From the NCBI GenBank assembly GCA_046760505.1, contig JBHIEG010000005.1:21868-85867 (forward strand): a stretch of DNA of 64,000 nucleotides. The letters are read 5' to 3'. The DNA is from CAYFZR01 sp046760505 [NCBI: Candidatus Hydrothermarchaeota archaeon]. GTDB lineage: Archaea > CAYFZR01. The translations under genes and the position numbers were made by a program. The notes beneath the pieces are model-generated. The model worked only from the letters and a program-made list of their open reading frames with translations, had not been told where the DNA came from and made no database searches. Numbering within the stretch: position 1 is the stretch's first letter; the number at the start of each line of letters is the position of its first letter. Positions 47,094-54,675 of this stretch are shown here, piece by piece.

Positions 47094-47122
47094 GGTTGAC
47101 AATATTTTAAAGTACCTGATGA

Positions 47123-47195
47123 GCCTTGGTGGCTTAGCAGGTAGAGCGCCTGCTTGGTAAGCAGGAGGTCGCGGGTTCGAATCCCGCCCAAGGCT
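47123..47195 (+). tRNA. tRNA-Thr (GGT anticodon)
   Basis: The cloverleaf is complete: acceptor GCCTTGG pairs with CCAAGGC, discriminator T at 47195, D arm GGCTTAGCAGGTAGAGC, anticodon stem CCTGC/GCAGG with loop TTGGTAA giving GGT, and T arm GCGGG/CCCGC with TTCGAAT. CCA is not encoded and there is no intron. Threonine tRNAs (ANN codons) receive the t6A made by KEOPS. Confidence 0.96.
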
Positions 47196-47284
47196 TCTTC
47201 TCTTGATTTCATAACTCTTTGAGATTACTTCCCTGCTCAGTTAAACCTTTATGTAATAAACCTCAGATGTATTTCGGTGAGCCT

Positions 47285-47749
47285 ATGAGGCTTTACCTAG
47301 TTCAGCACGGAGAAGCTAAAAGAGAAGAAGAAGATCCTGAGAGAGGTTTAACCGAAAAAGGTTTTAAAGACTCTGAAAAGGTTGCAAAATACATTTCCAA
47401 CCTCAATATAAAAATCAAAAGGATTTTTCACAGTGGAAAAACTAGAGCCAGACAGACGGCAGAAATTTATGCCAGATATTTGAAGCCAGAAGAGTTATTA
47501 GAAAGTGATGGTCTGAGCCCTCTAGATGAAATAAAAATCTGGAAAGATAGAATAAAAAATATGGACGAGAATATAATGCTTGTAGGACATTTGCCTCATC
47601 TAAGCAAACTAGCATCAGCATTAATAACAGAAGACGAGAGTAAAGAACTCATAAAATTCAAGATGGCGGGAACAGTCTGCCTTGAAAGGGATGAACAGGG
47701 CAAGTGGAGAATACTATGGTCGGTAATTCCAGAAATAGTTTCAGGATAA
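47285..47749 (+). CDS. SixA-like phosphohistidine phosphatase (histidine phosphatase superfamily)
   Basis: The protein of 154 residues starts LYLVQHGEAKREEEDPERGLT, with the catalytic histidine in QHGEA (RHG replaced by QHG), SGKTRARQTAEIY and LVGHLPHLSKLAS. SixA removes phosphate from histidine in proteins. The ATG at 47285 follows CGGTGAG. The R to Q change next to the nucleophile occurs in SixA-type proteins. Confidence 0.85.
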   Translation: MRLYLVQHGEAKREEEDPERGLTEKGFKDSEKVAKYISNLNIKIKRIFHSGKTRARQTAEIYARYLKPEELLESDGLSPLDEIKIWKDRIKNMDENIMLVGHLPHLSKLASALITEDESKELIKFKMAGTVCLERDEQGKWRILWSVIPEIVSG

Positions 47750-47753
47750 TCAA

Positions 47754-49013
47754 TCAATCTGGAAAGGATATCCTTTCATGAGACTCGCTGAATATGAACT
47801 CTCCCCTCTCCAGCATTTCGTTTAGAATTTTAATCGCCTTTTTTGCCTTATTCCTGTCTGAGAGCCTATACCCTATTTTGACTCTGTTTTCGTTGACCTT
47901 CAAGACGCCTAAATTCGCGTGAAAAGCTTCGCATAATGAAGTGCAGGCACCGCAGTTATGACAAAGATCCCTGTCTAATTTTTTGTTCGAAAAAGCAGAG
48001 GTGGGGCATTTTTCCTCTACCATGCACTTTTTAACGCATCCCACGCAGAGATCCGGGTACCATTTTACCTCCAAATCAACGCCTCTCCAAACTTCTCCAT
48101 AATTCGTTTCCCCCAAAATGGATCTATCATTCACATTCAATACCGGTAATGAAATATTTTCGTCCGTTATCTTACAGTTTTCAAGAATCAAATCATTTAT
48201 TACGGGAATTGGAACAGCGAGGGTTGAAACAAGTTCTGGGCCACCTGATGTATTAAATCCGCACAGAAATCTGGGACTCATGGTCTTCATATTGGCAGAG
48301 ATCATCAGGTTTGGCCTTTCTTTTACGCTTCTGGTTCCTCTGCCTATTACATATCCGATTGCTCCATTTATCCAGATCTTCGATCCTATTCCAATGGTTT
48401 CCAAGAAGGAATCGTGTTGTAATGGATTTAATTCGCCACAACCCGCAAATGTGGCGAACTTATATGGTCCTTCCAACTCCACCGGTGAAAATATCGTTCT
48501 AACTTTAGTTTTGTTAGGATTTACGAAAGCATAGTAATTTTTTACTAGATATCTCGTTCCTACCAACTGGGAGAGATTCATCTCATCTATACAGGTAGTT
48601 GCGCTTATGTTATTTCCTTCTTCGGTTATCGCATAGACTTCTATTTCTTTACCTTTAACGATGTCATGAATCAAATGCGCACCTCCGTATTTCTCGGAAT
48701 CTCTGCCAGGAGTGGTGGCAAATACTGCCACGTCCACGATACCCATTCTTTCGTTTGGGCATGGACCATGAAACGCTGGAACGCTATTTAGCCATACACA
48801 GGATAATTTTCTAAATTTACCTGGCTCTTCTATCTTAAAATTTAGAATTGCCATGGTTCCTGATACCAGAGAAGAAGTTCCACATGTTACAACGTCAACA
48901 TCACTGGCCTTAATATTTTTTCCCTCTCTTATATCCTCTGCTAGTTCGTCAGCTCCTACAACTACGGCTTCGCCTCTTTTTAACTTTCTATTTATTTCGG
49001 ATACTGTCTTCAT
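47754..49013 (-). CDS. DUF39 protein with C-terminal ferredoxin domain (homocysteine biosynthesis / methanogenesis marker 16-like)
   Basis: Residues 1-320 are the DUF39/COG1900 domain with cysteines in VVTCGTSSLVSG and SATTCIDEMN. Residues 330-380 carry 4Fe-4S motifs (CVGCVKKCMVEEKCP and CHNCGACTSLC). The methanogen enzyme MA1821 (DUF39) with a separate ferredoxin makes homocysteine from aspartate semialdehyde and sulfide; fused forms are known as methanogenesis marker 16. Either role is possible. Its ATG lies inside the tfe 3' end (26-base overlap). Confidence 0.85.
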   Translation of the reverse strand: MKTVSEINRKLKRGEAVVVGADELAEDIREGKNIKASDVDVVTCGTSSLVSGTMAILNFKIEEPGKFRKLSCVWLNSVPAFHGPCPNERMGIVDVAVFATTPGRDSEKYGGAHLIHDIVKGKEIEVYAITEEGNNISATTCIDEMNLSQLVGTRYLVKNYYAFVNPNKTKVRTIFSPVELEGPYKFATFAGCGELNPLQHDSFLETIGIGSKIWINGAIGYVIGRGTRSVKERPNLMISANMKTMSPRFLCGFNTSGGPELVSTLAVPIPVINDLILENCKITDENISLPVLNVNDRSILGETNYGEVWRGVDLEVKWYPDLCVGCVKKCMVEEKCPTSAFSNKKLDRDLCHNCGACTSLCEAFHANLGVLKVNENRVKIGYRLSDRNKAKKAIKILNEMLERGEFIFSESHERISFPD

Positions 49014-49494
49014 CGTTTATCCCGCAAATTTTTTTTAGGGATAATCTGAGTTTTTCAATTTTCTCGGAGGGATCAGAGTAATTTAAGGGCTCTCCACACA
49101 TACATCTAAAATTCGCCTCGCTTGCCTGCTCGAATGTATATTCATAACATCTTCGAGGACATTCATAGATTGCGGTCTCCTCATAAAACCTTATCTTTTC
49201 TTCAACACGTTTAATTGCCTTTTCCTTTTTTGTTTCTATTATATCCATGCTCCTGTCAAGGTTTAGCGTCCATGTGTATGTATACCATCCACTTTCTTTA
49301 TCTCTAGTTCTCACATACGTGGCAAGATGATGATCGTAAAGTTTATACAATACTTTCCTTACAGCATTTACCCTCAAACCAGTTTTCTCGGCGATTTCAG
49401 CATCTGTTGCGGATCTCTCGTTCAACATGGAAATTACCTTCATTCCTTCATCTCCCACAATCTCATATAAGAATTTTTTTACTTCTTTTTTCAT
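48988..49494 (-). CDS. tfe: Transcription initiation factor TFE, alpha subunit
   Basis: The 168-residue protein has the N-terminal winged helix (ATDAEIAEKTGLRVNAVRKVLYKLYDHHLA) and a C-terminal zinc ribbon (CPRRCYEYTFEQASEANFRCMCG, with CxxxC and CxC). TFE stabilises the open complex of archaeal RNA polymerase. It overlaps the DUF39 gene and is ten bases after the ATP-grasp gene. Confidence 0.96.
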   Translation of the reverse strand: MKKEVKKFLYEIVGDEGMKVISMLNERSATDAEIAEKTGLRVNAVRKVLYKLYDHHLATYVRTRDKESGWYTYTWTLNLDRSMDIIETKKEKAIKRVEEKIRFYEETAIYECPRRCYEYTFEQASEANFRCMCGEPLNYSDPSEKIEKLRLSLKKICGINDEDSIRNK

Positions 49495-49504
49495 TTTTTT
49501 TGCC

Positions 49505-50659
49505 TCAGGAGGGAATTATTGATCCGTATACGTAATTTACCAGAAAATTAGCGTTTTTAATAGCTTCTTCTCTTGTATTTCCATCGGCTACTATAGTTAC
49601 TATTGGTTCTCCCTTCTCAATCTTTCTACCTACATTTGGTACGTCGTATATTCCTTCTCTGTATAGATTTCTGGATACTTTACCTCTATATTTTGAAAAA
49701 ACGATCATTTTAACAGAATATTTGGTATTTTTTTTCAAAGAGGGTAAATCACCCTTAAGGGAGTCCAGATGCAACTTAATTAAATTTAGGTTATAGGCTC
49801 TTTCCACACATTCCAGGGATCCTTGGATTCTAGGATTTACTTCCACAAACCAATAATTTGAACCATCCCATACAAAATCAATGCCAACAGAGCCTACTAA
49901 ACCCAATTTTTCTATTATTTCACATGCATCCTGCGCTATTTTGTCTGAATCCTTTATGTCGAGCGGCGTTATATTTCCACAGTATCTGAATGGTTGTGTA
50001 CGTCCAAGAAATCGGGATCCAAGTATTTGTTCATTGATGGAAAGCGAAACAGCCTCTTTTCCGTTGGATATTAGGGATACGCTCGCGTGAATGCCTGAAA
50101 TATACTCCTGAGCAATGCAATCATCCTCAACAATTTTGTCAGTATGTGACTTTATGAGCCTGCAACCCTTGCCACCGGATCCGTATATAGGTTTTATCAA
50201 GAATGTTCCAAGTTCATCTAAAATTGGACTTACATCTTGATTTTTTTCAATTTTTATGGTATTCGGTACATTAAATCCCCATTTTGATAGTTTTTTAATA
50301 AGAAGATATTTATTATGAACATCTTTAACCTTCGAATAATTGTTACCAAGTATTTTTATCCCTAGGCTCTCGAGGAATTCTAGGTCGCATCCTGACGTGG
50401 GAATTATGCCGTCAACTTCATATTTTTCCAAAACTCTTAATGTAAGTTCATTTAGTTTTTTAACCTCAAATCTATCGTTAAATATTCCATCTGATTCATC
50501 TTGGTACTCCTCGAGGATAGATAAACAGTAGTCTGAATTATCAGCTAAATCCAACGATCCATAATGGTCAACAGAATAAACCTTCATACCAAGTCTTTTG
50601 GCTGAAAAAACCACGGGTCTCGTATTGTACCCTACTACTAAAACTGATTTGATTTCCAT
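49505..50659 (-). CDS. ATP-grasp family carboligase-like enzyme
   Basis: The 384-residue protein has an N-terminal Rossmann-like part (VLVVGYNTRPVVFSAKRLG), a central ATP-grasp fold with FLIKPIYGSGGKGCRLIKS and the metal site FVEVNPRIQGSLECVER. It resembles COG2232, predicted carboligases of archaea and H4MPT-using bacteria, but the substrate is unknown. Its ATG lies inside the trm56 3' end, showing tight coupling. Confidence 0.78.
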   Translation of the reverse strand: MEIKSVLVVGYNTRPVVFSAKRLGMKVYSVDHYGSLDLADNSDYCLSILEEYQDESDGIFNDRFEVKKLNELTLRVLEKYEVDGIIPTSGCDLEFLESLGIKILGNNYSKVKDVHNKYLLIKKLSKWGFNVPNTIKIEKNQDVSPILDELGTFLIKPIYGSGGKGCRLIKSHTDKIVEDDCIAQEYISGIHASVSLISNGKEAVSLSINEQILGSRFLGRTQPFRYCGNITPLDIKDSDKIAQDACEIIEKLGLVGSVGIDFVWDGSNYWFVEVNPRIQGSLECVERAYNLNLIKLHLDSLKGDLPSLKKNTKYSVKMIVFSKYRGKVSRNLYREGIYDVPNVGRKIEKGEPIVTIVADGNTREEAIKNANFLVNYVYGSIIPS

Positions 50660-51174
50660 AACTTTTTTCCTCTGTTACTAGGCAAGACGCGCACTTTTGC
50701 GTTATCAAAGGACCTATATAGTTCTTCTCCCTTGAAAAGCCTGTCTAGGAAAATTGCAAGTGCTGAAATCTCAGAATGAGGTTGATGTCCAATTGCAACG
50801 TTGTAATCCGCTATTTCGAAGATCTCAGCAGGCACCTTCTGCGAGCCGACTACTATCATCTTGTCTTTTTCTGAATTACGTATATTATCCAGAATTTCGT
50901 CTATCGGGAGACCATACATTGTTAGATGTATTATTTCCCCTCCCTTATCTTTCCACTCTTTTATTGCCTTTTTGTAGGGCACATTCGTCTTCAAGTAGAA
51001 GTTGCCTCCCCACCGGTCAACAATTTCGTTTACGGTTCGAAGAAGGGTTTCATCGTGAGTATCAGCCAAGATCATACCATCTGCGCCAAAAGCCCTTGCT
51101 GCAAGGGCTAAATGAGATGTTGTCCTCTTGTCCCTCTTTTCTCGATGACCCAACCTGAGTATTACCACTCGCAA
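50638..51174 (-). CDS. trm56: tRNA (cytidine(56)-2'-O)-methyltransferase Trm56
   Basis: The 178-residue SPOUT methyltransferase begins VVILRLGHREKRDKRTTSHLALAARAFGADG, the specific start of archaeal Trm56, and has HLTMYGLPI and VVGSQKVPAEIFEIADYNVAIG. It methylates C56 in the T loop of tRNA. It is followed by the ATP-grasp and tfe genes and preceded, 35 bases away, by the MnmC-like gene. Confidence 0.95.
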   Translation of the reverse strand: MRVVILRLGHREKRDKRTTSHLALAARAFGADGMILADTHDETLLRTVNEIVDRWGGNFYLKTNVPYKKAIKEWKDKGGEIIHLTMYGLPIDEILDNIRNSEKDKMIVVGSQKVPAEIFEIADYNVAIGHQPHSEISALAIFLDRLFKGEELYRSFDNAKVRVLPSNRGKKLWKSNQF

Positions 51175-51209
51175 TCTATCTCCTGAAAAGAGTAGATATA
51201 TTTTGCCAT

Positions 51210-52301
51210 TTATTCTTTCCGATTTAAAGATAATATCCTTTTTCTCATTTCTAAAATCCTTTCAACCGAATTTTTGAGCCTAACATCACATCTACCACAT
51301 ATGCACTCTTTCTTTACCGGACAGATCAGATATTTAGCATTGGAGTCATTCGGCTTCAAACCAAAGTTATTCAGAGTTTTTAATACCTTTGAGGGTATTT
51401 TATCCTCATAAAGCAAGTAAAAAGGCGTATTTTTTGAAGAAGGGAATAATATGTTGTTTCTTAACTCTTTTCTTTCTTTTTCTCTCCTTTTTAAAATTAC
51501 TGATGAATCATCCCTAAGATTCGGGTCTCTGAAGGGTATGCCCAGATCGGTCAGTGCAATCATGAGTTCGTCTCTCAGCGATATGTTAAAAGAATAGGTG
51601 GAGGGTGATGCAATGGTGCCCCCTCTGCGCCTGGCCCAAGGTCTTGTTTCTCCAATTGACTTGAATCCCGCCTCAATTAGAGATGAACGCATTGGGGAGG
51701 AAGATGAGTAGGTTATAAGAAAACCTGTTTCATTCATTTTATTTTTTATTAATTGAAAAAACTCTACTGTATAAAGTTCTGGAGAAAATGTTGGAGAAAA
51801 TGCATCAAATAACACCATATCGTATCCACCTTCGAGTTCTTTTACCATATCCCTTGCATCTCCGATATAAAAATTTAAGCAAATATTTTTATGTTTTGAC
51901 TCTTTTCTTTCTGAAAATAAGAAATTAGCAGCATACTCTTTATAAAGTTCATGAAATGGTTTGTAATTATTAAAATGATTTGGTAAATCAATTTTTCTAC
52001 TAATATCTAATATTTCCCTGTCTTTTTCAACCAAATCTATCCTAATTGATCTGTAATATTTAGAGTTCTCCCAAAAATACTTCAAAGCAGCAACTGTATT
52101 GTATCCTAGTCCGCTACATAAATCTAAAATTTTTATATTTTTATATAGAAAAATTACCCATACACAAGGTTTAATAAACTTAAATATGGCCTCTGATAAG
52201 GCACCATTACGGTCATGCATCGCCTCCCTTTTCTCAGTACCATTTTGCTCGAATACGAGAGTTTTGGTACCATCCTTTGTATTCAGAAGATATTTCTTCA
52301 A
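51210..52301 (-). CDS. MnmC-like (DUF752) tRNA methyltransferase domain protein
   Basis: The 363-residue protein has the MnmC N-terminal methyltransferase signatures: MHDRNGALSEA, SAM motif ILDLCSGLGYNTVAALK, LVEKDREIL and LFDAFSPTFSPELYTVEFF. In bacteria this domain methylates nm5U34 of tRNA. The C-terminal third ends in a cysteine group (CPVKKECICGRCD) that could bind metal. TTG 52301 is preferred because AGGAG lies eight bases before it and twelve bases separate it from the upstream stop; an ATG at 52367 or 52358 would overlap that gene. Confidence 0.82.
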   Translation of the reverse strand: MKKYLLNTKDGTKTLVFEQNGTEKREAMHDRNGALSEAIFKFIKPCVWVIFLYKNIKILDLCSGLGYNTVAALKYFWENSKYYRSIRIDLVEKDREILDISRKIDLPNHFNNYKPFHELYKEYAANFLFSERKESKHKNICLNFYIGDARDMVKELEGGYDMVLFDAFSPTFSPELYTVEFFQLIKNKMNETGFLITYSSSSPMRSSLIEAGFKSIGETRPWARRRGGTIASPSTYSFNISLRDELMIALTDLGIPFRDPNLRDDSSVILKRREKERKELRNNILFPSSKNTPFYLLYEDKIPSKVLKTLNNFGLKPNDSNAKYLICPVKKECICGRCDVRLKNSVERILEMRKRILSLNRKE

Positions 52302-52312
52302 TCCTATATCTC

Positions 52313-54235
52313 CTATATGACTGGAGCGTATTTTGTTACTGGACAGTTGTTTAAACATTCCATGCAATGTTTACATCTTTTTTCATCAATCCAGAAACTT
52401 CCGTCTTTAAAAAATATCGCGTTTTCTTTGCACTTTCCTGAACAAATTCCACAGGAAACGCATTTAATAGACCTGTACACGATTTCTGCTATTAAATTTG
52501 AAACTTCTTTTAATTCCTCTTTCTTATATCCCCTTATTACGACATTGCCGTTTCTTGATATCCATGCGCTATTTCCATTCCATCTTATCATTACTATTCC
52601 AAGGTCTTTGTTTAAAATGGGTTTCGCTATACAGTTCATCAGGTTAGCTGTTTTTTCTATATCCAGAGCAGTATTAAATGAACCTTCTATCGATATTTTC
52701 TTTTCTCCCAGACACGGTCTAAGTCCAGAAACCAGTTTGAGGTCTGAAACTTTATCATGAACCTTTTTAGGCTTTATATCAACATTCAATTCTTTAGCGA
52801 TCGCCAGTTGAGACTTCGGAAGTTTTTGCCATCTCCAAAAGCCGAATTTATACCATTCCTTTGAATACCCCCTCTCTTCAGACCATTTAGAGATCAGATT
52901 ATCCCATTTTTCCCATAAATCCGGATGGATCTCAATTACCCTTCTAAATTCAGCCATATCTGATGATGGACACATCCAGCACCCTATCCTCTCAAAACCA
53001 TTCTCGTAGAGAGGATTGTACCTTAAACCCTTCCAGAATATGTAGAGCCAAACCTGGAGGGCACTCCAGTCAAATATAGGGCTGGCACCTATCTGCCCCG
53101 GTACCCATGGATTCTTCCATATTTTACTTTGTCTGGCCCTGTTTTCTGATTCATATTTCCTTTGTCCAACAAAGGTCAAACAACCCCTGGGGAAATGTTT
53201 TTTTATGAGGGTCGTCATCGGTCCGAGTTTGCATGTTTTGCAGCACCATCTGTAGTCTCTACCGGGAGGGCCGAATTTTGAAAATGCCCTCCAGAATTCG
53301 TCTGATTTCTTTGTTTTTACGTCAACTTCAAGATCTCTGAGCAAATTCTCCGTATATTTTAATGTCTCAGGAAACTCCAATCCTGTGTCGACAAACAATA
53401 CGGAGAGGTCTAATCCCTCTTCATCACAAACTTCCCTTACTATATTTAGCGTGACTAGGCTATCCTTGCCACCGCTGAATGCCACGCAAACATCTCTGTT
53501 TACATTTTCTATGACGTTTTTTGCAAATTTTTTTGCTCTCCTTTCTTCTCTCTCTAAAACATTTTCGTTTGCATCAATCACGTCTTTCCAGTCTTGCCCG
53601 GGTTTGGCTGATATATTGCTAGGAAAACCGTGTCTTCTTATCTTAACCGCCAATCCTTTGGTATTTTGCATTTCATTAGCATTTTTGTAGGCTATACCCA
53701 AGGCTATTACCTCATTCCTATGATTTAATACGTAAACCTCATCTCCCTTTTTTATACTCCCCTCTACATCTGTTACTCCAGGAGAGAGGAGATTCTTTCC
53801 TTCGAGTACAGCATCTCCCGCTCCTGAGTCACATCTCACCCACTTCTTTCCCCCGGCCTTGTTAATCAGCGCGGCAGATTCTAGTCTCAGGCGGGGCTTG
53901 AATTTGCTATTTTGCAAAGAATATTGAACTGATGCTATTACTTTACCATCAACTATTATTTCGTCCATCTTATCTATAGAAGGAGCATTGTTTAGTAAAA
54001 TAATTTTGTCTGGTGGAATAACAATATTTCCTATACCGTTACCATAGTCTTCATCGAAAACCTTTCTCATCAAATCAATGTCGTAATCAAACGCTGGCCT
54101 TATGTCCCCGGGGGGTGTTACCTCTATTTTTCTCCCTGAGGATCCGCATTTATTGCATCTATCTCCTAGCAGAGGAACATTGCATTTCTCGCACCAAAAG
54201 TGCTCTAATTTTGCAAGGTAAACTGGCTTGCCCAT
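52313..54235 (-). CDS. PAPS reductase-like PP-loop protein with zinc ribbon, PUA domain and C-terminal ferredoxin
   Basis: Domains in order: zinc ribbon (CEKCNVPLLGDRCNKCGS, residues 14-32), a PUA domain (about 150-225, WVRCDSGAGDAVLEG, LLSPGVTDVEG), the PP-loop SGGKDSLVTLNIV (about 254), cysteines RWCCKTCKLG and GCWMCPSS, and two 4Fe-4S motifs (CVSCGICSGKCKE, CKHCMECLNNCP). True PAPS reductase would not need a PUA RNA-binding domain, so an RNA-modifying role is plausible. It heads the run with the MnmC-like and Trm56 genes. Confidence 0.87.
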   Translation of the reverse strand: MGKPVYLAKLEHFWCEKCNVPLLGDRCNKCGSSGRKIEVTPPGDIRPAFDYDIDLMRKVFDEDYGNGIGNIVIPPDKIILLNNAPSIDKMDEIIVDGKVIASVQYSLQNSKFKPRLRLESAALINKAGGKKWVRCDSGAGDAVLEGKNLLSPGVTDVEGSIKKGDEVYVLNHRNEVIALGIAYKNANEMQNTKGLAVKIRRHGFPSNISAKPGQDWKDVIDANENVLEREERRAKKFAKNVIENVNRDVCVAFSGGKDSLVTLNIVREVCDEEGLDLSVLFVDTGLEFPETLKYTENLLRDLEVDVKTKKSDEFWRAFSKFGPPGRDYRWCCKTCKLGPMTTLIKKHFPRGCLTFVGQRKYESENRARQSKIWKNPWVPGQIGASPIFDWSALQVWLYIFWKGLRYNPLYENGFERIGCWMCPSSDMAEFRRVIEIHPDLWEKWDNLISKWSEERGYSKEWYKFGFWRWQKLPKSQLAIAKELNVDIKPKKVHDKVSDLKLVSGLRPCLGEKKISIEGSFNTALDIEKTANLMNCIAKPILNKDLGIVMIRWNGNSAWISRNGNVVIRGYKKEELKEVSNLIAEIVYRSIKCVSCGICSGKCKENAIFFKDGSFWIDEKRCKHCMECLNNCPVTKYAPVI

Positions 54236-54312
54236 TCTATCTACCTTAACAGTTATGGTTATAAGGTTGTACGTAATAAGTATTTATACCCTAATTTGAA
54301 AGAGTGAGACTC

Positions 54313-54675
54313 ATGCCTGAAGTAAACTACAAAGAGATCGGCGAGAAATTAATTGGATTGGAAGGTGTAACATCGGTGGCTTTTTTCTACGATGGTTTAC
54401 CGGTTGAAACCATTGGCGAACTATCGGATCACGAACACATCTCAGCAATGAGTGAGGAAATGGTCAGATCCGGCATAAAAATCGCCAAAGAACTAGGTAT
54501 CGGTGATTTTGAGATGCTTGTGCTTGATAGCAAGAACAACAAACTACTTTTTTTCTCATTTGGAGAAGTGGCTGCAGTCATACTAACAGATCCAAAGCAG
54601 GCACCGAACCTCACCGAACTTGAACTAAAGATAAGGCTCGAATGTCTCAAAATTAAAAGAGACTACGGTCTTTAG
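54313..54675 (+). CDS. Roadblock/LC7-like domain protein (second copy)
   Basis: The 120-residue protein has the Roadblock layout (EIGEKLIGLEGVTSVAFFYDGLPVETIGE, then FEMLVLDSKNNKLLFFSFGEVAAVILTD). A TATA box (TATTTATACC, about 54280-54289) predicts a leaderless start at ATG 54313, favoured over GTG 54304. It is unlike the first copy at 3838 in sequence. No GTPase partner is adjacent. Confidence 0.8.
   Translation: MPEVNYKEIGEKLIGLEGVTSVAFFYDGLPVETIGELSDHEHISAMSEEMVRSGIKIAKELGIGDFEMLVLDSKNNKLLFFSFGEVAAVILTDPKQAPNLTELELKIRLECLKIKRDYGL

What the first reader, a model, noticed from the sequence alone, without database searches (positions are those of the whole stretch)
47754..54235. tRNA-modification and sulfur-related operon led by a PUA/PP-loop/ferredoxin protein
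Six co-oriented genes with overlaps or short gaps combine a PAPS reductase-like enzyme carrying an RNA-binding PUA domain and ferredoxin, an MnmC-like U34 methyltransferase and Trm56, then ATP-grasp, TFE and a DUF39-ferredoxin sulfurtransferase. A PUA domain makes sulfate reduction unlikely and RNA thiolation or another redox-dependent tRNA modification plausible. This is the best candidate here for an undescribed enzyme system.
Basis: inference. Interest (0 to 1): 0.65.

Follow-up and report, generated by a model that had tools for sequence, protein, structure and literature searches.

The report
Archaeal RNA-binding sulfur-transfer enzyme, function untested
A protein found in many methane-making archaea and their relatives, usually labelled a sulfate-assimilation enzyme, looks instead like one that reads an RNA and puts sulfur on it; the neighbouring genes in this window do not seem to travel with it.

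Summary
The six co-oriented genes are real and correctly placed. As a 'system' they fall apart. None of 127 fetched loci of the PUA/PP-loop gene (about 94 distinct places) holds another operon gene. The MnmC family is absent from all 293 Halobacteriota and Thermoplasmatota genomes searched, 103 of which carry the PUA/PP-loop gene. The last gene is methanogenesis marker 16, the coenzyme M synthase ComF, not a tRNA enzyme.

The lead protein is the interesting part. It belongs to an uncharacterised family (NCBIfam PRK13795) whose relatives are called 'putative APS/PAPS reductases' in print. The data favour an RNA sulfurtransferase. It has an archaeosine-TGT-type C2+PUA module (Z 16.9), an invariant SGGKDS ATP loop and CC...CxxC cluster site, a TBP-like domain and a ferredoxin. 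The ECG[IL]H catalytic motif of sulfonucleotide reductases is lacking in 68 of 68 rows. Fifty of 80 carrier genomes show no ATP sulfurylase. The best defence-library match is BrxP, the type-4 BREX DNA-phosphorothioation enzyme. A paralogue in one genome is fused in one frame to a SufS-type cysteine desulfurase, the classic sulfur donor.

Against this, M. jannaschii homologues were reported to reduce APS/PAPS; I did not see those works. RNA substrate and product remain unknown.

The parts
52313..54235 (-). PUA/PP-loop/ferredoxin protein, 640 aa, NCBIfam NF010368 (PRK13795.1-3)
54140..54199 (-). N-terminal four-cysteine (zinc-ribbon-like) motif, residues 13-32; Cys 15, 18, 27, 30 present in 67 of 67 rows that cover them
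   Evidence: metal not tested
53624..54100 (-). C2+PUA module, residues 46-204, superposes on archaeosine TGT residues 430-582
   Evidence: PF01472 67 bits; 1iq8 Z 16.9, rmsd 2.9, 150 aligned
52961..53563 (-). PP-loop core, residues 225-425: SGGKDS 254-259, RWCCK 329-333, CxxC 419-422
52460..52747 (-). TBP-half-like alpha+beta domain, residues 497-592
   Evidence: model pLDDT 74-94 per block from residue 510 on, under 50 before that; TBP Z 9.7, rmsd 2.3, 90 aligned; Foldseek best E 4.2e-3
52334..52465 (-). 2[4Fe-4S] ferredoxin domain, residues 591-634; its eight Cys kept in 58 or 59 of the 59 rows that cover them
51210..52301 (-). MnmC2-like methyltransferase (probable TTG start at 52301), PF05430, with a Cys-bearing C-terminal extension
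   Evidence: an operon neighbour, not a conserved partner
50638..51174 (-). Trm56, tRNA C56 2'-O-methyltransferase
49505..50659 (-). ATP-grasp_3 protein of unknown substrate
48988..49494 (-). TFE-like (TFIIE alpha) transcription factor
47754..49013 (-). methanogenesis marker 16 protein = ComF, coenzyme M synthase
   Evidence: TIGR03287 458 bits; PMC12068725

Best explanation
The lead protein is an RNA (most likely tRNA) sulfurtransferase. The N-terminal ribbon and the archaeosine-TGT-type C2+PUA module dock the RNA (inferred from fold). The PP-loop (SGGKDS) binds ATP and adenylates the target atom; a [4Fe-4S] cluster held by Cys331, Cys332, Cys419 and Cys422 carries or activates sulfide; the ferredoxin domain supplies electrons to reduce or recycle the cluster or an incoming persulfide (all inferred). 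A cysteine desulfurase is a sulfur source at least in the fused paralogue (fusion seen, activity inferred). The operon is a transcriptional grouping of mostly unrelated translation, transcription and cofactor genes, not a dedicated pathway.
For: Domain fusion. SGGKDS and the four cluster cysteines in 68 of 68 aligned rows, 63 of them distinct. EC[GS][IL]H motif in 0 of 68 rows and in none of 9 further paralogue rows, against 3 of 3 true PAPS/APS reductases. A cysteine within 60 residues after C422 occurs in 19 of 68 rows: 13 at the third residue, 3 at 30, 2 at 33, 1 at 54, so no position is conserved. PADLOC BrxP 178.7 bits against SspD 49.4 and DndC 29.6; the best CysH model reaches 90 bits on the PP-loop part (a different library). 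BrxP ends in an alpha+beta domain plus ferredoxin as here (PMC12839542, section 34); a plasmid BrxP aligns with query residues 219-629, through the ferredoxin. 879-aa fusion of a paralogue to a SufS-type desulfurase. No ATP sulfurylase of either kind in 50 of 80 carriers; Sat in 7 of 50 carriers against 26 of 97 non-carriers. PP-loop fold also matched by U34-tRNA thiolase NcsA, Z 12.3.
Against: M. jannaschii homologues were reported to reduce APS and PAPS (cited in PMC6286981 and PMC10322725, passages seen; originals not seen). Thirty of 80 carriers do have an ATP sulfurylase. The CC...CxxC site is shared with APS reductases, so it does not discriminate. The best PP-loop fold match by Z is FAD synthase (15.8), with APS/PAPS-reductase chains at 13.3-15.2, above NcsA (12.3). 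PUA also occurs in glutamate 5-kinase (TIGR01027). The tree does not resolve whether the family is nearer to BrxP or to CysH. The fusion was seen in the one genome looked at and lies in the paralogue clade, where Pfam PUA does not score at E 1e-3. No neighbour that I looked at points to an RNA target.
Confidence: 0.55

Rival explanations
1. It is a divergent assimilatory APS/PAPS reductase, as the literature annotates its relatives; the PUA-like part has been re-used and the ferredoxin replaces thioredoxin as electron donor.
For: Best Pfam domain PAPS_reduct; structural matches to APS/PAPS-reductase chains, Z 13.3-15.2; M. jannaschii homologues reported active, and paralogue pairs read as one APS and one PAPS reductase (PMC6286981 passages; PMC10322725 passages). 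M. jannaschii rings for PRK13795 and for PRK08557 as a control genome (in each, one of the two ringing controls is over the cut-off, the tool does not say which). Thirty of 80 carriers have an ATP sulfurylase.
Against: No ECG[IL]H catalytic Cys; SGGKDS instead of the SFG-type loop of E. coli CysH; 50 of 80 carriers lack both kinds of ATP sulfurylase; no positive association with Sat among 147 genomes (odds ratio 0.44, p 0.096). PMC6286981 itself says the source of APS/PAPS is unclear.
Confidence: 0.25
2. It uses ATP to activate an RNA position for something other than sulfur (amidation, lysidine-like addition, nucleotidyl transfer) or a redox step.
For: PP-loop folds with such chemistry match: FAD synthase Z 15.8, TilS 12.8, GMP synthetase 12.5.
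Against: Fused cysteine desulfurase in a paralogue and BrxP likeness point to sulfur.
Confidence: 0.12
3. One reading: the six genes form one tRNA-modification and sulfur pathway, with MnmC-like acting on the same U34.
For: Tight spacing; Trm56 and MnmC-like are tRNA methyltransferase families; M. jannaschii rings for both PF05430 and PRK13795.
Against: MnmC family in 0 of 293 genomes although 103 carry the lead gene; no conserved neighbourhood; MMP16 makes coenzyme M; archaeal U34 thiolation already has NcsA (PMC10067955, start of abstract in a listing).
Confidence: 0.04

Closest known systems
NCBIfam NF010368 PRK13795 ('hypothetical protein'); archaeal homologues are 'putative APS/PAPS reductases' in print
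   Same: Full-length match, 692 bits over a cut-off of 588
   Different: Not different: it is a member. The printed function of its relatives is what is disputed
BrxP of type-4 BREX (DNA phosphorothioation)
   Same: SGGKDS, RWC[CT]...K, GCxxC, alpha+beta domain and ferredoxin on the C-terminal side
   Different: BrxP is often fused to DUF4007 (PMC12839542 section 34) and its PP-loop follows only about 135 residues in the Methanosphaera protein, with no alignable PUA; found in 4 of 147 Halobacteriota genomes (E 1e-60) against 50 with the PUA form (E 1e-80); no PglZ or BrxL match in the 127 PUA loci, though that test is weak
NcsA (archaeal U34 2-thiouridine synthetase; PDB 6scy)
   Same: PP-loop fold and iron-sulfur cluster, Z 12.3, 188 aligned
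   Different: 15% identity in the superposition; different family; no PUA or ferredoxin fusion known to me (recalled)
E. coli CysH, Thermus and Priestia phosphoadenylyl-sulfate reductases
   Same: Same fold and Pfam domain (Pfam of these three recalled)
   Different: ECG[IL]H present, SGGKDS absent; separate clade
Archaeosine TGT C-terminal C2-PUA module
   Same: Residues 46-204 superpose at Z 16.9
   Different: Different catalytic domain

Membership tests
PRK13795 family (NF010368) | Full-length score above the curated cut-off | tested here: met
   692 of 588 bits required
Assimilatory APS/PAPS reductase (CysH) | PAPS_reduct domain | tested here: met
   155 of 22.5 bits
Assimilatory APS/PAPS reductase (CysH) | C-terminal catalytic cysteine in ECG[IL]H (role recalled) | tested here: not met
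   EC[GS][IL]H in 0 of 68 rows and in none of the 9 paralogue rows. The looser EC[GS] after C422 occurs in 3 of 68 (L002 and L014, the same gene, KECGML; L035, PECSNE), in other contexts
Assimilatory APS/PAPS reductase (CysH) | Score above cysH/PAPS/APS reductase cut-offs | tested here: not met
   PP-loop part: 90.2 of 154, 69.5 of 165.1, 57.1 of 235.3, 53.2 of 254.2 bits
Assimilatory APS/PAPS reductase (CysH) | Host can make APS (ATP sulfurylase present) | tested here: inconclusive
   Sat 19 of 80 and CysD 11 of 80, no overlap; 50 of 80 have neither, 30 have one. The window's own genome is not held
Assimilatory APS/PAPS reductase (CysH) | Reduces APS or PAPS | not testable with these tools
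   Reported for M. jannaschii homologues, originals not seen
[4Fe-4S] PP-loop nucleic-acid sulfurtransferases (DndC/SspD/BrxP) | SGGKDS loop, RWC[CT]...K and GCxxC | tested here: met
[4Fe-4S] PP-loop nucleic-acid sulfurtransferases (DndC/SspD/BrxP) | Puts sulfur on a nucleic acid | not testable with these tools
   needs an assay
BrxP of BREX type 4 | Neighbouring PglZ, BrxL, BrxC | tested here: inconclusive
   None found among the window neighbours scanned. PglZ and BrxL of the Methanosphaera plasmid hit none of the 127 PUA loci, but they also hit no other BrxP locus, so the test is weak
BrxP of BREX type 4 | Groups with BrxP in a tree | tested here: inconclusive
   Each clade is supported, their joining is not
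tRNA thiolases | Places sulfur on tRNA | not testable with these tools
   needs mass spectrometry
MnmC2 | NF033855 above cut-off | tested here: not met
   71.6 of 136 bits; Pfam domain met at 95.3 of 22
MMP16/ComF | TIGR03287 above cut-off | tested here: met
   458 of 364 bits

The most novel reading that the evidence does not exclude
The family is the cellular RNA counterpart, perhaps the source, of the BREX-4/SspD DNA phosphorothioation writers: it puts sulfur on RNA, possibly as a backbone phosphorothioate, a modification with no established RNA writer that I know of.
Probability: 0.1. Interest if true: 0.9.

Novelty: new variant of a known kind. Interest (0 to 1): 0.5.

Why it matters
About a third of the Halobacteriota and Thermoplasmatota genomes sampled carry this protein, Methanosarcina among them, often with a second copy, and relatives are filed under sulfate assimilation although 50 of 80 carriers examined show no means of activating sulfate. 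Re-reading it as an RNA sulfurtransferase gives a testable enzyme for sulfur marks in methanogen tRNA (s2C17 and s2U33 are reported in M. maripaludis, PMC7668247 passages; no enzyme is named for them in the passages I saw) and ties an archaeal RNA enzyme to phage-defence DNA sulfur writers.

Tried and rejected
Operon as a system: rejected. MnmC/PUA-PAPS co-occurrence: fails in Halobacteriota and Thermoplasmatota; other phyla were not reached because no handle was available, and M. jannaschii, which rings for both, shows that they can meet. A search of 99 relatives of one Thermoplasmatota genome with the window's MnmC-like protein also found nothing, but had no positive control. Sequence homology of the BrxP N-terminus to the C2 domain: looked alike by eye, but hhalign gave 0.06% probability, so dropped; the C-terminal alpha+beta parts also do not align on their own (0.49%), only within the full-length alignment (100%, E 1e-66). 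Conserved neighbours: only lineage-level groups; HisH-like next to the gene in 9 and PurH-like in 6 of 69 loci, named by reading the sequences; a threonyl-tRNA-synthetase-like gene lies within about 3-10 kb in 10 of 69 loci, not adjacent, not pursued. Search of viral contigs: no match. Pfam on the TBP-like part: no family. Naming the window's organism: not achieved; best identities about 38-45% for the lead protein.

Literature: listings of searches showed no paper that, by title or abstract start, proposes RNA sulfur transfer for this family; most of these papers were not opened. A term search inside PMC10853773 (DNA phosphorothioation machinery) found none of my terms. The identity of the M. 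jannaschii PAPS reductase with MJ0066 is recalled, not shown.
Full report
The observation. Each has a family match at E 1e-26 or better. The methyltransferase probably starts at TTG 52301 behind GGAG, 11 bases after the first gene. The last gene scores 458 bits to methanogenesis marker 16 (cut-off 364). In Methanosarcina acetivorans this protein is the primary coenzyme M synthase (PMC12068725; abstract and passages seen). It is therefore a cofactor enzyme, not a tRNA enzyme.

Is it one system? I fetched 13 named loci of the lead gene, then genome loci, 60 further stretches, most of about 11-12 kb, and 30 loci of marker 16. Of 157 loci held, none contains a match (tblastn, E 1e-4) to the window's MnmC-like, Trm56, ATP-grasp or TFE protein; marker 16 was found in all 30 of its own loci and in none of the others. 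The 127 loci with the lead gene stand for about 94 distinct places, since many were fetched twice (102 places in 135 loci, 8 of these 135 being BrxP-type, fusion or similar loci outside the 127). Their shorter flank has a median of 1.9 kb, and is 3 kb or more in 62 of 127. Neighbours cluster only within lineages. It rings in 7 of 14 control genomes, M. jannaschii among them, so the search works, and M. jannaschii shows that both families can meet. Marker 16 is more frequent among carriers (38 of 50) than among non-carriers (32 of 97) in Halobacteriota, as expected of a family centred on methanogen lineages.

What the lead protein is. It is a member of NCBIfam PRK13795.1-3 (692 bits, cut-off 588). 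Carriers are 50 of 147 Halobacteriota (E 1e-80) and 53 of 146 Thermoplasmatota (E 1e-60). Two matches are listed for 24 of the 50 and 21 of the 53; some pairs may be pieces of one gene, and weaker paralogues fall below the limit, as in G093. In 68 aligned rows (63 distinct) the four N-terminal cysteines are present in 67 of 67, SGGKDS, C331, C332, C419 and C422 in 68 of 68, and the eight ferredoxin cysteines in 58 or 59 of the 59 rows that reach that domain.

Structure. AlphaFold2 on 14 sequences gave pLDDT 83. Residues 46-204 match the C2+PUA end of archaeosine tRNA-guanine transglycosylase at Z 16.9; the PP-loop part matches FAD synthase, APS/PAPS reductases, TilS and NcsA at Z 12-16. The C-terminal piece alone (pLDDT 76; 74-94 per block over most of the domain, under 50 at its start) matches TBP at Z 9.7 over residues 497-592, with a best Foldseek E of only 4.2e-3. 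For the corresponding domain of BrxP a Mog1p/PsbP-like fold has been described instead (PMC12839542, section 34).

Reductase or sulfurtransferase? Phosphoadenylyl-sulfate reductases fetched for comparison (E. coli, Priestia, Thermus) end in ECGLH or ECGIH; none of 23 PUA/PP-loop rows has that motif, nor do the 6 BrxP, the SspD or the DndC row, nor any of the 68 aligned rows. All PUA/PP-loop, BrxP, SspD and DndC rows have SGGKDS; E. coli CysH has an SFG loop. The CC...CxxC site is not diagnostic, since the Priestia and Thermus reductases also show CC and CxxC (sequences printed). In 80 of the 103 carriers, Sat-type ATP sulfurylase was found in 19 and CysD in 11, without overlap, so 50 of 80 show neither (18 of 50 Halobacteriota and 12 of 30 Thermoplasmatota have one). 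Over all 147 Halobacteriota, Sat occurs in 7 of 50 carriers and 26 of 97 non-carriers, odds ratio 0.44, p 0.096: no positive link; CysD was not sought in non-carriers. Genomes may be incomplete.

Relatives that move sulfur to nucleic acid. The best match in the defence library is BrxP (178.7 bits), then SspD (49.4) and DndC (29.6). BrxP on a Methanosphaera plasmid lies near a gene annotated BREX-4 PglZ and a BrxL gene, and its relative in Treponema (an unannotated frame) beside a DUF4007 gene and near a class-V PLP enzyme; both align with the window protein from the PP-loop through the ferredoxin. In a 42-row tree the PUA form, BrxP and the reductases are each one supported group (98/99, 95/89, 100/98), but how they join is unresolved and several rows are long.

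Fusion to a sulfur donor. It belongs with the paralogue clade (34-38% identity to the five paralogues tested, 31% to the window protein). I looked at this one genome only. [quoted passage not shown] the word PUA does not occur in its text). A desulfurase hands over persulfide sulfur, which a sulfonucleotide reductase does not need but a thiolase does (established knowledge of these families, recalled).

Against. M. jannaschii homologues were reported to reduce APS (2011 paper) and PAPS (2013 thesis); I saw only citations of them. If that activity is real and physiological, the family, or its M. jannaschii branch, is a reductase after all.

Mechanism, with status. RNA docking by ribbon and C2+PUA: inferred from fold. 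ATP activation at SGGKDS: inferred from motif. Cluster at CC...CxxC carrying sulfide: inferred. Electrons from the C-terminal ferredoxin: inferred; the short form of about 470 aa (L042-L047) lacks that domain, so an external donor would have to serve there. Sulfur from cysteine: suggested by the fusion. Target and product: unknown. Candidate marks for testing are s2C17 and s2U33, reported in M. maripaludis tRNA (PMC7668247 passages); that archaeosine TGT, with the same docking module, works at the nearby position 15 (recalled) makes position 17 attractive, but this is speculation, and s2C17 is also reported in P. furiosus and T. kodakarensis, whose genomes I did not search.

Novelty. The family is known and an annotation for its relatives exists; the reading as an RNA sulfurtransferase with a BrxP-like core did not appear in the listings of searches. 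I file it as a new variant of a known kind.

Noticed in passing
window 51210-51600, - strand: The MnmC-like protein has a C-terminal extension of about 130 aa with a CPVKKECICGRC cysteine cluster, a possible metal site outside the matched MnmC2 domain.
   Followed up: no
L176:2312-4951: One-frame fusion of a PUA/PP-loop paralogue with a SufS-type cysteine desulfurase.
   Followed up: partly
L112:6175-6483: Orphan 102-aa ORF with an SGGKDS loop in the neighbourhood of the Methanosarcina paralogue, perhaps a PP-loop remnant.
   Followed up: no
L159:8908-10053: M. congolense plasmid II carries a BrxP-like PP-loop/ferredoxin gene with no annotated BREX gene in the 13.7 kb shown.
   Followed up: no
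L006:11708-13637: In Thermoplasmatota loci (L006, L007, L099, L102) a radical-SAM-like gene lies downstream of the PUA/PP-loop gene on the opposite strand; in L006 a ThiF/E1-like gene adjoins it (both named by eye).
   Followed up: no
window 54236-54303: The lead gene and a divergent gene with a sub-threshold roadblock/LC7 match (54304-54675, +) share a 68-base promoter region with a TATA-like stretch.
   Followed up: no
window 47122-47749: tRNA-Thr (GGT) followed by a SixA-type phosphohistidine phosphatase gene, convergent with the operon.
   Followed up: no
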